In this document: positions 510 through 13,710 of the stretch, piece by piece
Layout: each line of letters opens with the position of its first letter
Numbering within the stretch: position 1 is the first letter of the stretch
From: Saprospiraceae bacterium
GTDB lineage: Bacteria > Bacteroidota > Bacteroidia > Chitinophagales > Saprospiraceae
Length of the DNA stretch: 43,344 nt
NCBI GenBank assembly: GCA_029263015.1
Contig: JAJCYI010000030.1
Coordinates: 1-43,344, forward strand
Reading direction: 5' to 3'
Position numbers and translations under genes: made by a program
Notes under the pieces: model-generated
Seen by the model: the letters and a program-made list of their open reading frames with translations, nothing else
Told to the model about the DNA's origin: nothing
The model's database searches: none

Positions 510-1157
510 ATGAGAACCTGGTCTATCCTTCTACCGTTCTTTTCAGCTTTAATAATTTTATCCTGCGGCATTAGCCGGGGATTGCTTTTCAAAAGTAAAT
601 GTGGAACAGCCGAACCCTACTCCATCAAACCAGTGGCAATAAATTTAGAAGAAGGCGATTTGTTATTGGGTAGCACTCGGATATGGAGGGAACGAAATCA
701 AAGCGTTCCTTACGATTTAGGGGCAACAGTTATTTCCGATGACGAATTTGAAAAAATCAAAAGCCATTTCAAGAATCAGGTTTATGGTGACAGCATTTAT
801 GCGTTTGCCCTGTTCTTCGACGGATTAATCAGCATGGAAAATAATTTTGACCCCAATGACCTTATCGGATATTGTAAATACACTATTGAGAAAGGTAAAA
901 TGTACCAAACCCTTTATACTAAGGCTATGGGTAGTTTCATGTTGCACAAATATTTTGGTGGAGAGGCTGCTTATTTGGAATACAACTCATTGGGTTATTA
1001 TGCCCAGCAGGTGTTCAAACAACATGAAAACCGTTCTTTTATCTTGATTAGGAACGTGGGGCATGACAGGCTCAATCTTAGGCATCCTAAAAATGAAGTA
1101 TTGAAAAAAATAAGAGCATCAGGGCTTAATAAAAGTGAGGGTAAAGTATCAAGCTGA
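510..1157 (+). CDS. Unknown lipoprotein
   Basis: A 215-residue protein starting with a typical lipoprotein signal: positive MRTW, a hydrophobic stretch and an ILSC lipobox with Cys at about residue 19. It should be exported and lipidated. The mature part has no motif I recognise. It is mixed alpha/beta and rich in Tyr and Phe (for example FDPNDLIGYCKYTIEKGKMY near residues 113-132). No catalytic signature is evident. The nearest gene downstream is a decayed toxin-antitoxin locus on the other strand, so no operon context helps. The function is unknown; the coding call rests on length, signal peptide and the absence of a better frame. Confidence 0.7.
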   Translation: MRTWSILLPFFSALIILSCGISRGLLFKSKCGTAEPYSIKPVAINLEEGDLLLGSTRIWRERNQSVPYDLGATVISDDEFEKIKSHFKNQVYGDSIYAFALFFDGLISMENNFDPNDLIGYCKYTIEKGKMYQTLYTKAMGSFMLHKYFGGEAAYLEYNSLGYYAQQVFKQHENRSFILIRNVGHDRLNLRHPKNEVLKKIRASGLNKSEGKVSS

Positions 1158-1244: not shown

Positions 1245-1758
1245 TTACAGTATATTGAGAAAAGAATCCGCCGTCATGACTAGGATAGAAACGTTTTTAA
1301 AATCTTGCAGGTTTCTGGTAAGAAAATACTGCATATTGTTTTGTTCGGCAACTTGATATTGAATAGTATCTTCCAAATCTTTAAAATTTGAAACGGCGTT
1401 GTTGCATGAACATTTTTCCTTTGGTCAAAGCGGACTTTCGGTCACGAACATTTTTTAAAAAGTCTTTTCTGTGATAAGTATTTGGCGAAAATTAAATAAA
1501 CCAAATAAGATTGTTTCATGTAACAACGCCATTTGAACCCAAAGAAAGGTCAATCGTTTTTTCATTTACAGGGAGTGGTGTCACCAACAATCTAAATTTT
1601 GAAATGGCTTGCCAGGCCGACTTCTTTGTTGGCAAAGATTTGCAAAGCAAGTAAAGAAGGAATGGGAATACGCTTGCTGGAACCTAAGCTTCCACTTCTC
1701 CCGAATCAGCTTTATTGAAAAACATGGCTGCGAGGACGTCAAAGGGTTCTCTTTTCAT
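1245..1758 (-). pseudogene. PIN-domain (VapC-like) toxin remnant, split by a MITE
   Basis: Read on minus, three blocks rebuild most of a PIN ribonuclease toxin. Block 1 (1752-1687) reads REPFDVLAAMFFNKADSGEVEA and ends in a TAG at 1684-1686. Block 2 (1683-1531) continues in the same frame with YLLCKSLPTKKSAWQAISKF and ends LSLGSN. Block 3 (1385-1245) gives NFKDLEDTIQYQVAEQ after the duplication and then FLTRNLQDFKN, the C-terminal PIN signature. A 136-bp MITE plus its 9-bp duplication sits exactly between blocks 2 and 3, and removing them restores the frame. The N-terminal strand with the first catalytic Asp (LDTN-type) is missing. PIN toxins are usually 130-140 residues; about 120 remain. 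The gene is dead through N-terminal deletion, a nonsense codon and the insertion. Confidence 0.85.
1395..1530. mobile_element. 136-bp MITE with 16-bp TIRs and 9-bp target duplication
   Basis: The element starts GGCGTTGTTGCATGAA (1395-1410) and ends with its near-perfect complement TTCATGTAACAACGCC (1515-1530, one mismatch). The flanks ATTTGAAAC (1386-1394) and ATTTGAACC (1531-1539) agree at 8 of 9 positions and read as a target duplication. There is no coding capacity inside. A second element at 13526-13710 has the same ends and also a 9-bp duplication. Nine-base duplications and this kind of TIR are compatible with mobilisation by an IS5-group (IS903-like) transposase, which is not in this window; that family link is inference. 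Confidence 0.85.
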
Positions 1759-1939
1759 CAAGATAGGACTTTTTTTCATCAAAATCTGGAGGAAGGGTTT
1801 CTATGCCGTACAGGCTTTCGACCGAAGGGGTGAGCGGCGAAGTTTCTCTATTCTTGCTATTGGTAATGCTATCTAGATAGGCTTCAATCAGTCTGGATAG
1901 ACTGGTACTGTATTGTTTGGGTTTTCTCCTTGCCCTACC
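1739..1939 (-). pseudogene. DUF6364-type antitoxin remnant
   Basis: The minus frame encodes KQYSTSLSRLIEAYLDSITN followed by SKNRETSPLTPSVESLYG and LPPDFDEKKSYLDEKRTL, stop at 1739-1741. This is the pattern of the C-terminal two thirds of DUF6364 antitoxins: a TSLS..IE.YL helix followed by a SL.G...LP.DFD tail that wraps the PIN toxin. The ribbon-helix-helix N-terminus (KLTLTID...) is absent; the frame runs straight back into the stop codon of the ASPIC gene at 1940-1942. The adjacent PIN remnant on the same strand confirms the pairing. Both the antitoxin start and the toxin start have been deleted, so the locus is inactive. Confidence 0.78.
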
Positions 1940-4177
1940 TCACCCACCAAACTCAAACCTTTTCACCTCATAATATTCCACCTCCGCTTCCCCTTCCGTG
2001 ATCTTCATAAAACGATTGATCTCAAGATTTTCAAAAACCCTGACGGAATGCACCCGGTTAGGCCATTTCACTTTGATGGATTTGATTTTGGTGGCATCGC
2101 CAAGGCCGAGTTCGAGTTGGAGGCTGTTGCCGCCGAAGCTGCTGCCTGTGGAGACGGTGGTGTGGAAGACCTGTTCTTTACCACTGGCATTTTGTGTGGT
2201 AACTTTCACTCTGGCGCCGATGGCGCAGTGGTTGGCAGTTGTGCCCACGAGCTTGAGGGAAGTCCAACTGTTTTCATCGCCAATGGGGTTGAGGAAAAAG
2301 GCATCGCCAAAAACATCCCCCTCGAATGCGCCGCCGATGACTGTAAAAATATCCTGGTCGCCGTCGTTGTCGAAATCGCCGAAACCGACGGCGTGGCCTT
2401 TTTGGACATGTCCGAAACCGCCAGCGGTGGTCACATCCTGATAGCTCCGGCCGTTGTTGTTGCGAAACATTTTATTGGGCACGACAGCTGTGAAACCAGG
2501 CGCTCCCGTTCCAAGATAACAATCGAGCCAGCCATCGTTGTCGATGTCGCCGTAGTTCGAGCCCATCACGAACATGGCCTCGTCCAGCCCTGCTTTTTTG
2601 GCAATATCGGTGAAGGTGTTATCCTGGTTGTTGATAAAAAGGGAAGGATTGCCCTCAGTGGCCTCGCCCCGGAAGTTCAAGGCAGCCAGGTGGGCTGCGA
2701 CCCGTCCGTCCCTCACGCCAAATCCAGCAGCAAAAATGTCTTCCCAGCCATCGTTGTTGAAATCGAACATCCAGCAGGGGAAGCTGACGATGGGCGTTTT
2801 TGCGGTGGCTGTTTCAGAGATGTTTTGAAAACTGATGGATTGGGTCTCAGGGTTGAATCCATTGTTCAACAATAGGAAATTAGGAGACCCAAGTATGGAG
2901 ATGTACAAATCTGTCCAGCCGTCGTTGTTCACGTCGCCAGCGGTGCAGCCTTTTATAAAAGCGTAAAGTTGGCCAAGCCCCAATTCCACTACTTTATTGG
3001 TGAAAGTGCCGTCACCATTATTGAAATAAAACTCGCAGGGATTGTTGTACCCCTGTCCACTTTCATTGCCGATGAAAAGGTCGAGCCAGCCGTCGTTGTC
3101 GAAGTCGGCCCAGGCGGCGGTCTGCGTGGGGGCGAAATTCAGAAGGCCGGCCTCTTCTGTCACATCCGAAAATGTTCCGTCTCCATTATTTCTAAGGAGT
3201 GAATTTGGAATCTGGCCACTCTTCTTGTACCAGGCCCCACGGAGCACCAGCACATCGATCCAACCGTCGTTGTTGTAGTCGGCGTGTTGGGTATTGAGGC
3301 CACCCCTCAGGCTATCGAGCCCTGCCTCTTTTGATTTTTCGGTAAAACTCCCGTCGCCATTGTTTACGTAAAAATGTGATTGGTCAGAAGAGCCCCACGA
3401 CGAAGCGAAGATGTCAAGTAGTCCATCGTTGTTGAAGTCGTCCACGCAAGTTCCGCCGGACAGTCCCATCGTATTCACACCTATTTCATCAGCGATGTTC
3501 TTAAAAATAGGGACTTGGTAATCAGAGGAAAAAGAACGCGTTGGGATCAGCCATTTTGCGGGAACTTTTTCAGGGTATTCCCCGAGGGTCATGTAAGCAA
3601 AATTGAGCATCCACAGGGTTTCGTAATGATCGGGCTTTTCATTCAGCATTTCTTCATAAAGCTGGATGGCCGTGAGGCTTGCCTCTTGGATGGTATAAAT
3701 GCCTTCCCCTTTGATCGGCATGAGGCAGGATTCGCGGTTGAAGCGTTGGATGCAGTTGTCCGATTCGCCGAGGCGGATGTACGAGAGGGCGAGCATACGT
3801 TTTACGGTAAAGAGGAAATCGGCGTTCAGCCCAGCCTGGGTACCCGATTGCAGCAGTTGTTCAAATTCCCCGATGGCCTGTTCGTTTTTACCAGCATTGA
3901 GCAGCTCATAGGCATAGTACATTTTGTTGGTCATTTGGTCGTTGACGGTCTGGCTGTTGTCCATTTTGATCTTGTACTGCTCGGCCCGTTGGGCGTTGAG
4001 GTAGTACTCCAAACTCAGCGGGTCTATATTGCTATATGAATCGGCAAGGAGCTTGATCATTTTGGCCGTGCCCGAAAGCTGCTTGGCAGGAGGTGGGGCC
4101 TCGTTGGAAGTTTCATCCCCACAACTTGATAGAACGATAAAAAGGAGAATGGCTAAGGTTGTACTCAATAGTTTCAT
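1940..4177 (-). CDS. FG-GAP/VCBS repeat lipoprotein with ASPIC/UnbV domain (CRTAC1-like)
   Basis: A 745-residue exported lipoprotein: signal MKLLSTTLAILLFIVLSSC with Cys at 19, a helical TPR-like region (about residues 35-200), then a beta-propeller built from FG-GAP/VCBS repeats (about 225-630). The repeats show the calcium-binding core D-x-N-N-D-G-x-x-D many times (DFNNDGLLDIF, DYNNDGWIDVL, DFDNDGWLDLF, DVNNDGWTDLY, DIDNDGWLDCY, DFDNDGDQDIF). The last about 90 residues carry the ASPIC/UnbV domain (IGARVKVTT...STGSSFGG...ELGLGDATKIKSIKVKWPN). Proteins of this family are surface or secreted and thought to bind ligands or polysaccharide; no catalytic role is visible. It is divergent from the CotH-like gene, with 114 bp between them. 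Confidence 0.93.
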   Translation of the reverse strand: MKLLSTTLAILLFIVLSSCGDETSNEAPPPAKQLSGTAKMIKLLADSYSNIDPLSLEYYLNAQRAEQYKIKMDNSQTVNDQMTNKMYYAYELLNAGKNEQAIGEFEQLLQSGTQAGLNADFLFTVKRMLALSYIRLGESDNCIQRFNRESCLMPIKGEGIYTIQEASLTAIQLYEEMLNEKPDHYETLWMLNFAYMTLGEYPEKVPAKWLIPTRSFSSDYQVPIFKNIADEIGVNTMGLSGGTCVDDFNNDGLLDIFASSWGSSDQSHFYVNNGDGSFTEKSKEAGLDSLRGGLNTQHADYNNDGWIDVLVLRGAWYKKSGQIPNSLLRNNGDGTFSDVTEEAGLLNFAPTQTAAWADFDNDGWLDLFIGNESGQGYNNPCEFYFNNGDGTFTNKVVELGLGQLYAFIKGCTAGDVNNDGWTDLYISILGSPNFLLLNNGFNPETQSISFQNISETATAKTPIVSFPCWMFDFNNDGWEDIFAAGFGVRDGRVAAHLAALNFRGEATEGNPSLFINNQDNTFTDIAKKAGLDEAMFVMGSNYGDIDNDGWLDCYLGTGAPGFTAVVPNKMFRNNNGRSYQDVTTAGGFGHVQKGHAVGFGDFDNDGDQDIFTVIGGAFEGDVFGDAFFLNPIGDENSWTSLKLVGTTANHCAIGARVKVTTQNASGKEQVFHTTVSTGSSFGGNSLQLELGLGDATKIKSIKVKWPNRVHSVRVFENLEINRFMKITEGEAEVEYYEVKRFEFGG

Positions 4178-12851: not shown

Positions 12852-13523
12852 ATGCTGTATGAACATTGGTCAAAATTAAAAGAAAACATGAAAATAGCTG
12901 AATTTCAAAGTTTCATCATAGAGTTTCCATATAAAAACCAATCGGTTGATATAAAAAGCGACAAATGGATAGTTGAGAGTCAACAAAATTTTATTGATGA
13001 TATTTTCGAAAATAAAAAATTAATCACCCTTAATAGAAGTGATTTGATTAATTCAAGATCGAATATAAAAGAATTTATTTTAAAAACTTTAATGTGGGGT
13101 TATCCGACTAAAGGTAGAGGACGCAATATTGAAAATTTACTTGAGAAAAGAAATTTAGAGCAATTAATAGAAATCCTTAATGGTTACAAAGAAAATGAAA
13201 TTACCATTGACCGATTGAAAAAAGACATAAGATCTGTTTCTGGATTAGGATTGTCAACTATTACAAAATTTACTCATTTTTTGGACACAACTATTGATGG
13301 AAATAAAGCCGTAATTTTGGATAAGCGAATCATAGAAACAATTAATGTTGGTCGATTTGATGAATTTAAAAATTTAAAAGGAATAAAATACGATAATGCT
13401 GCTAAATATTATTTTGAGTATTTAGAAATAATAAATAAATTATCTGAATTAATAAAAGCCGAACCAGATCAGATAGAAATGTTTTTATTTATTTTTGGCA
13501 GATCACTATCAAAAGTTAATTGA
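12852..13523 (+). CDS. OGG-fold (8-oxoguanine glycosylase-like) protein
   Basis: A 223-residue soluble protein from the ATG at 12852 (a GTG at 12834 is in frame but overlaps the end of the leader repeats). It has MWGYPTKGRGRNIE, a helix-hairpin-helix-like VSGLGLSTITKFTHFL, DGNKAVILDKRIIETI and a C-terminal PDQIEMFLFIFG. This order fits the family annotated as 8-oxoguanine DNA glycosylase OGG-fold proteins, found mostly in accessory DNA; I judge this from memory. The Asp of ILDKR could be the glycosylase catalytic Asp, but there is no obvious catalytic Lys at the usual HhH position. The gene is much richer in A/T than its neighbours and flanked by repeats, both signs of transfer. A MITE has inserted exactly at its stop codon. 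Confidence 0.65.
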   Translation: MLYEHWSKLKENMKIAEFQSFIIEFPYKNQSVDIKSDKWIVESQQNFIDDIFENKKLITLNRSDLINSRSNIKEFILKTLMWGYPTKGRGRNIENLLEKRNLEQLIEILNGYKENEITIDRLKKDIRSVSGLGLSTITKFTHFLDTTIDGNKAVILDKRIIETINVGRFDEFKNLKGIKYDNAAKYYFEYLEIINKLSELIKAEPDQIEMFLFIFGRSLSKVN

Positions 13524-13525
13524 TA

Positions 13526-13710
13526 GGCGTTGTTGCATGAATATTTATGCAGATAATCAGAATTTTATAAATTAAGATAATAATTAATTGTCTATTTTAA
13601 AGACTTTAGAACAGTTGTCACAATGTTTTATATTGGTTATTTATTATCTATTTTTGCAATATAAAATTTTGTATTTCTACTGAATTCATATTTTTTTATG
13701 CAACAACACC
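13526..13710. mobile_element. 185-bp MITE with perfect 9-bp target duplication
   Basis: Left end GGCGTTGTTGCATGAA (13526-13541) and right end TTATGCAACAACACC (13696-13710) are inverted copies. The flanks are identical nonamers TAATTGATA (13517-13525 and 13711-13719). The left duplication contains the TGA stop of the OGG-fold gene, so the insertion keeps that protein intact. The interior is very A/T-rich and has no ORF. It shares ends but little interior with the MITE at 1395. Confidence 0.9.

What the first reader, a model, noticed from the sequence alone, without database searches (positions are those of the whole stretch)
1245..1939. A toxin-antitoxin pair killed in three ways, with a MITE exactly splitting the PIN toxin
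Seen: on minus, an antitoxin tail of DUF6364 type is followed by a PIN toxin in three blocks. A 136-bp MITE with a 9-bp duplication sits between blocks 2 and 3, and deleting MITE plus one duplication copy joins LSLGSN to FKDLEDTIQY in frame. Known: PIN toxins need Asp in the N-terminal strand; that strand is deleted. Inference: deletion of the antitoxin and toxin starts, a nonsense codon, and the MITE insertion record a stepwise death. The order of events could be dated.
Basis: partly seen in the sequence, partly recalled or inferred. Interest (0 to 1): 0.75.

Follow-up and report, generated by a model that had tools for sequence, protein, structure and literature searches.

The report
Dead toxin-antitoxin pair with transposon insertion
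A bacterial toxin-antitoxin gene pair lies in ruins between two other genes, broken by deletions, a stop codon and a tiny transposon, which is a tidy but ordinary example of gene decay.

Summary
On the minus strand at 1939-1245 lies a relic DUF6364 antitoxin plus PIN_3 toxin operon. The antitoxin piece passes Pfam's cut-off for DUF6364. Each of three toxin pieces, searched apart, matches a profile of 26 intact homologs (0 of 1000 shuffles reach each score). The pieces on either side of the insert end and begin in neighbouring alignment columns, so it sits between two adjacent codons; 6 of 26 homologs have one residue more there. The insert (1395-1530, 136 bp) is a real MITE, but its 9-bp duplication is 8/9 identical. 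I trace it to IS5-family elements (IS903-type by their 9-bp duplication): a decayed 1132-bp copy in the same genome and an intact 1132-bp copy in a same-genus genome. A first lead, an IS630 with a 9-bp duplication, proved to be a nested insertion.

The deletion at the toxin start also took the antitoxin's end (about 58-63 bp, inferred). Order and date of events stay open: no near allele among 298 family genomes, and none of 10 same-genus neighbourhoods clearly holds the pair. Ordinary decay, new member of known kinds.

The parts
1742..1939 (-). Antitoxin relic (DUF6364, PF19891): 66 codons without a stop and without an ATG, GTG or TTG, lacking about the first 16-20 residues and the last few
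   Evidence: Pfam 5e-8, profile positions 21-69 of 70; own profile columns 17-75 of 82, 56.9 bits, 0 of 1000 shuffles; codons
1751..1765 (-). Fusion point: reads as the antitoxin C-terminus (YLDEK) in one frame and as the toxin (ILMKREP) in another; about 58-63 bp missing against intact operons
   Evidence: Alignment to intact homologs; sequence; size is inference from the spacing in 10 intact pairs
1687..1779 (-). Toxin piece 1 (PIN_3), toxin-like from about 1764 on; the N-terminal strand with the first Asp of the family motif is missing
   Evidence: 12.7 bits at columns 14-38, 0 of 1000 shuffles
1684..1686 (-). In-frame TAG between toxin pieces 1 and 2
   Evidence: Sequence; alignment
1531..1683 (-). 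Toxin piece 2
   Evidence: 15.8 bits at columns 51-89, 0 of 1000 shuffles
1531..1539 (.). Target duplication, one copy (8 of 9 identical to the other)
1395..1530 (.). 136-bp MITE with 16-bp ends of IS5-family (IS903-like) type
   Evidence: related copy in the own genome 90% identical
1386..1394 (.). Target duplication, other copy
1245..1385 (-). Toxin piece 3 with its stop codon; keeps the FKDLED and TRN..DF stretches
   Evidence: 52.7 bits at columns 91-135, 0 of 1000 shuffles
1940..4177 (-). Unbroken neighbour: FG-GAP / UnbV_ASPIC protein, whose stop codon directly precedes the antitoxin relic in the same frame

Best explanation
This is a dead, probably horizontally acquired type II toxin-antitoxin operon (DUF6364 antitoxin, PIN_3 toxin). 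Shown: the antitoxin lacks its start; the antitoxin end and the toxin start, with the first Asp of the family motif, are missing at one fusion point; the toxin frame has a TAG; and an IS5-type MITE sits in the toxin frame between two adjacent codons. Inferred: the fusion arose by one deletion of about 58-63 bp, perhaps between short repeats, and it could have been the first fatal event, since it takes part of the toxin's active site while leaving most of the antitoxin. After that nothing selected against the stop codon, the antitoxin-start loss or the MITE. The MITE was moved by an IS5/IS903-type transposase and has no role in the locus now.
For: Antitoxin: Pfam DUF6364 5e-8. Toxin pieces: collinear profile matches at 14-38, 51-89, 91-135, each beating all of 1000 shuffles. 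Relatives: 23 of 100 genomes (own included) have a match to toxin piece 3 and 21 of 60 (own included) a DUF6364 match; many of these places hold both genes side by side and whole, one in the own genome at C139 (L043). MITE: ends and 9-bp duplications shared with a decayed 1132-bp IS5-family copy in the own genome and with an intact 1132-bp copy in G010, whose ends differ from the motif at one and two bases. Horizontal gain: 0 of 10 same-genus neighbourhoods of the ASPIC gene (9 genomes) have a piece at E 0.01 or better, nor 0 of 68 loci from named genomes. A parallel case, G033:C97, keeps a full antitoxin beside a broken toxin, which fits toxin-first death.
Against: No near allele was found to show the intact or the MITE-free state at this site; the case rests on homologs mostly 34-56% identical to the pieces. 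Toxin pieces 1 and 2 are weak taken singly (12.7 and 15.8 bits). All 26 homologs in the profile were picked from frames that piece 3 matched, which flatters piece 3. At the insert, 6 of 26 homologs have one residue more, so a lost codon there is not strictly excluded. The alignment also puts a 3-residue gap in the antitoxin just before the fusion, so more than one deletion is possible. The duplication is 8 of 9. MITE and IS match only over 16-20 bp at the ends. One search gave three weak hits (E 0.026, 0.083, 0.092) that I take as chance, and one locus (L125) has only 646 bp downstream.
Confidence: 0.93

Rival explanations
1. The antitoxin relic still does something: its C-terminal, toxin-binding part survives as a short protein that neutralises the intact toxin elsewhere in the genome (anti-addiction).
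For: 66 codons without a stop; an intact DUF6364-PIN pair in the same genome, C139; the relic is in frame with the upstream ASPIC gene past its stop codon.
Against: None of its 66 codons is ATG, GTG or TTG; the C-terminal end is clipped; identity to the C139 antitoxin is only 43%; one frame in three would match the ASPIC frame by chance.
Confidence: 0.03
2. A dead operon as above, but the MITE insertion itself killed the toxin and the other lesions came later.
For: The frame was continuous across this point when the MITE landed.
Against: Nothing separates this from the other order; the deletion that removes the first Asp would be expected to kill the toxin on its own (recalled for PIN domains).
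Confidence: 0.25
3. Assembly or sequencing error made some of the lesions (for instance the TAG).
For: The genome is a draft of 245 contigs; reads were not available.
Against: The MITE has a duplication and related copies; four separate lesions in one small locus are unlikely errors.
Confidence: 0.03

Closest known systems
PIN_3 / DUF6364 (VapBC-like) type II toxin-antitoxin operons
   Same: Gene order antitoxin then toxin; profile matches for both; whole pairs in the own genome and in relatives
   Different: Both genes are broken here; the first Asp of the toxin motif is gone. That such pairs act as toxin and antitoxin is inference from the PIN domain; 0 papers in the library hold the word DUF6364
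IS5-family elements of the IS903 group and their MITEs
   Same: 9-bp target duplication (given for the 8 IS903-group elements in the Table 2 passages I saw of PMC3281130, and for IS903B in a passage of PMC9769513); 16-bp ends, one identical and one with one mismatch to a 1132-bp IS5-family copy in the same genome
   Different: 136 bp, no transposase; no similarity to that IS beyond 16-20 bp at the ends. That the IS903 end sequence resembles this one is recalled, from no call
Genes inactivated by MITEs (review PMC10969869, passages seen)
   Same: Insertional inactivation of a gene by a MITE is described
   Different: Here the target was a toxin of a toxin-antitoxin pair that carries other fatal lesions too

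Membership tests
DUF6364-PIN_3 type II toxin-antitoxin operon | Antitoxin of DUF6364 type upstream | tested here: met
   33.7 bits over a cut-off of 27.3; partial, positions 21-69 of 70
DUF6364-PIN_3 type II toxin-antitoxin operon | PIN domain downstream on the same strand | tested here: met
   Only as pieces and only against a profile of whole homologs, three of which were shown to hit PIN_3; no direct Pfam hit
DUF6364-PIN_3 type II toxin-antitoxin operon | Intact open frames with all catalytic acids | tested here: not met
   N-terminal Asp strand missing, TAG, MITE; it is a relic of this kind, not a working member
DUF6364-PIN_3 type II toxin-antitoxin operon | Toxicity and neutralisation | not testable with these tools
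   none; bench assay of a whole pair needed
MITE of an IS5/IS903-type element | Terminal inverted repeats shared with an autonomous-type element | tested here: met
   Both ends of G000:C32:33025-34156 read GGCGTTGTTGCATGAA, identical to one MITE end and one base from the other; its three broken frames hit IS5 transposase NF033579 below the cut-off (68.5, 58.2, 29.8 bits against 140); an unbroken one in G010 passes it (309.4 bits)
MITE of an IS5/IS903-type element | 9-bp target duplication | tested here: met
   8 of 9 here, 13 distinct elements passed a filter of 7 of 9 or better: 7 at 9, 4 at 8, 2 at 7. Paired ends in L002, L101 and L112 did not pass
MITE of an IS5/IS903-type element | No coding capacity, short, several copies | tested here: met
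   136 bp; one further near-full copy in the own genome at 90%, one full-length in G009 at 73%; copy number is low
IS630-family element (considered and dropped as parent) | Transposase element bounded by these ends | tested here: not met
   The IS630 in L003 has its own 33-nt inverted repeats inside the MITE ends: nested insertion

The most novel reading that the evidence does not exclude
The clipped DUF6364 relic is a retained anti-addiction fragment: it lost DNA binding but kept toxin binding, and still protects the cell against the intact PIN toxin at C139 or against incoming elements.
Probability: 0.03. Interest if true: 0.45.

Novelty: new member of a known kind. Interest (0 to 1): 0.22.

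Why it matters
It is a clean worked example of how an accessory toxin-antitoxin locus dies: four lesions of three kinds in about 700 bp, with the insertion point readable nearly to the codon. With population data it could help test whether toxins die before antitoxins. As it stands it changes no picture. It also adds a group of IS5-type MITEs with defined ends and 9-bp duplications in this Bacteroidota genus.

Tried and rejected
Rejected: an IS630 element with a 9-bp duplication as parent of the MITE. L003 looked like that, but the IS630 has its own inverted repeats just inside the MITE ends, so it sits inside a MITE. A paper search made for that lead (8 listed, listing only) was not followed.

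Led nowhere: Pfam and NCBIfam on the toxin pieces alone; Rfam on the window (no match); toxin piece 2 in 60 genomes (own genome only); PDB sequence search with one whole homolog (no match); PADLOC on one whole pair (no match); a close allele of the antitoxin in 298 family genomes (highest identity elsewhere 56%); papers holding DUF6364; papers on decayed toxin-antitoxin pairs (9 listed, listing only, no title on point); papers on MITEs and toxin-antitoxin systems (242 found, 20 listed). Of those I looked into PMC6354349 (passages: MITE recombination deleting plasmid DNA that a toxin-antitoxin system guards, not a MITE inside a toxin; 12 of 20 places shown) and PMC10969869 (passages). The folded MITE strand is only mildly more stable than shuffles (z -2.35, 5 of 200 as good).

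Considered: dating the events by the mismatches in duplication and repeats. Rejected, because one mismatch in 9 bases and 10% divergence from a sister copy give no order relative to the deletions.

Full report
What was checked. The finding claims, on the minus strand at 1939-1245, a DUF6364 antitoxin tail, then a PIN toxin in three blocks, with a 136-bp MITE and a 9-bp duplication between blocks 2 and 3.

Antitoxin. The frame 1742-1939:- is 66 codons without a stop, none of them ATG, GTG or TTG. It hits Pfam DUF6364 at 5e-8, 33.7 bits over a cut-off of 27.3, at profile positions 21-69 of 70. Against a profile of 20 antitoxin homologs (aligned, built) it scores 56.9 bits at columns 17-75 of 82; the best of 1000 shuffles scores 9.4. 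So about the first 16-20 residues are missing. What lies there instead is the end of an unbroken FG-GAP / UnbV_ASPIC gene (1940-4177:-), whose C-terminus looks normal beside same-genus orthologs.

Toxin. The pieces 1687-1779, 1531-1683 and 1248-1385 (all minus) have no Pfam hit alone, and no NCBIfam hit except one far below its cut-off at E 0.099 for the middle piece. By blastp against frames of loci from relatives, piece 3 is 62% identical over 37 residues to a broken toxin of G033 and 50% over 44 to the whole PIN frame of L042; the other pieces match at 34-56% over 24-50 residues. I aligned 26 whole PIN frames and added the pieces as separate rows. Scored apart against that profile, piece 1 gives 12.7 bits (columns 14-38), piece 2 15.8 bits (columns 51-89, to its second-last residue) and piece 3 52.7 bits (columns 91-135, from its first residue). 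In each case 0 of 1000 shuffles reached the score. In the alignment piece 2 ends in the column directly before the one in which piece 3 begins, and in L042 they match residues up to 97 and from 98. So the MITE with one duplication copy lies between two neighbouring codons; no joining was needed to show this. Against strictness: 6 of the 26 homologs (L043, L017, L041, L018, L019, L025) have one residue more just before this point. All 26 homologs were picked from frames that piece 3 matched, so piece 3's score is flattered; pieces 1 and 2 are the freer tests. Three of the whole homologs were run on Pfam and hit PIN_3 (PF13470) at 8e-17 to 1.6e-19.

Lesions. There are four. (1) The antitoxin start is lost. 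(2) A fusion lies around 1751-1765: the same bases read YLDEK in the antitoxin frame and ILMKREP in the toxin frame, both close to the family pattern. In 10 intact pairs the first Asp codon begins 18-23 nt behind the antitoxin's last base. From that spacing, and assuming the family's usual antitoxin tail, I infer that 58-63 bp are missing here, with the antitoxin's last residues and the toxin's first 13 or so, including the first Asp of the D-T/S-N/D motif. That this Asp is catalytic in PIN domains is recalled. The alignment also shows a 3-residue gap in the antitoxin just before, which may be length variation or a further loss. (3) A TAG at 1684-1686. (4) The MITE.

The MITE. It spans 1395-1530. 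Its ends are 16-bp repeats with one mismatch between them. Its flanking 9-mers agree at 8 of 9; 11 of 43175 placements of a 136-bp stretch in the window do as well, this one included. The end motif occurs 4 times in the window against 0.06 expected, twice here and twice at 13526-13710, a second MITE with a perfect duplication. The own genome has one further near-full copy at 90% (C21). Of 60 genomes, own included, 4 have a match to the MITE, and one of them, G009, a full-length copy at 73%. In one search, over 27 sources, 13 distinct paired elements passed a filter of 7 of 9 in their flanks: 7 at 9 of 9, 4 at 8 of 9, 2 at 7 of 9. Paired ends in L002 and L101 (the sister copies) and L112 did not pass. 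In the motif search over 100 genomes, own included, 36 had a match; many are single hits, which the reversed control motif also gives, while the own genome had 12 against 1.

Parent element. G000:C32:33025-34156 is 1132 bp with two ends identical over 16 bp and a perfect duplication. Three broken frames in it hit the IS5-family model NF033579 at 4e-7 to 6.7e-19, all below its cut-off, with several stops inside. G010:C604 holds an unbroken transposase frame over the cut-off (309 bits) in an element also of 1132 bp, with ends one and two bases off the motif and a perfect 9-bp duplication. In the Table 2 passages of PMC3281130 that I saw, the 8 IS903-group elements of the IS5 family have 9-bp duplications while IS427-group ones have mostly 2; a passage of PMC9769513 gives 9 bp for IS903B. 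So the MITE belongs with an IS903-type IS5 element (inference). Similarity between MITE and IS does not extend past 16-20 bp at the ends, so it is not a simple internal deletion of the copy found. An early lead, an IS630 bounded by the same ends and a 9-bp duplication (L003), fell away: it has its own 33-nt inverted repeats just inside.

Origin and order. None of 10 same-genus loci (9 genomes) with the ASPIC gene has a toxin or antitoxin piece downstream at E 0.01 or better; three weak hits at E 0.026-0.092 are taken as chance, and one locus has only 646 bp downstream. Nor has any of 68 loci from named genomes at E 0.01. The pair therefore looks acquired here. Of 298 family genomes, own included, 74 hold antitoxin relatives; the highest identity listed outside the window's own locus is 56%. 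No near allele was found, so the MITE-free state is known only at protein level, and the events cannot be dated or ordered. One related case, G033:C97, has a full antitoxin beside a broken toxin, which fits toxin-first death but is a single case; G038:C3 has both genes partial and G010:C53 a toxin frame with a stop.

Organism. The nearest named orthologs of the ASPIC gene include Bacteroidetes HyVt-532 (60%) and Saprospirales NAT133 (56%). The window is probably from a Saprospirales-like Bacteroidota; its own record was not named.

Verdict. An ordinary relic.

Noticed in passing
window 13526-13710: A second MITE with the same kind of ends (185 bp) and a perfect 9-bp duplication TAATTGATA that covers the stop codon of the ORF ending at 13523; about 90% identical to a copy at G000:C217.
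   Followed up: partly
L003 308-1530 (G000:C166): An IS630-family element nested inside an IS5-type MITE, mimicking an IS630 with a 9-bp duplication.
   Followed up: yes
G009, many contig ends: Intact transposon ends lie within about 25 bases of many contig starts or ends, suggesting many collapsed copies of one IS in this same-genus genome; NF033579 finds no transposase there, so the mobiliser may be another family or missing from the assembly.
   Followed up: no
L050 / L011 (G033:C97): A whole DUF6364 antitoxin next to a PIN toxin broken in the middle: an independent dead pair.
   Followed up: partly
L116 (G014:C22) 232-286 and L115 (G010:C363) 301-366: Very small elements (55 and 66 bp), little more than two inverted ends, with perfect 9-bp duplications.
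   Followed up: no
window 510-1157 +: A 215-residue protein with a lipoprotein-like start and no Pfam or NCBIfam hit, found in none of the 13 other genomes of its genus searched.
   Followed up: partly
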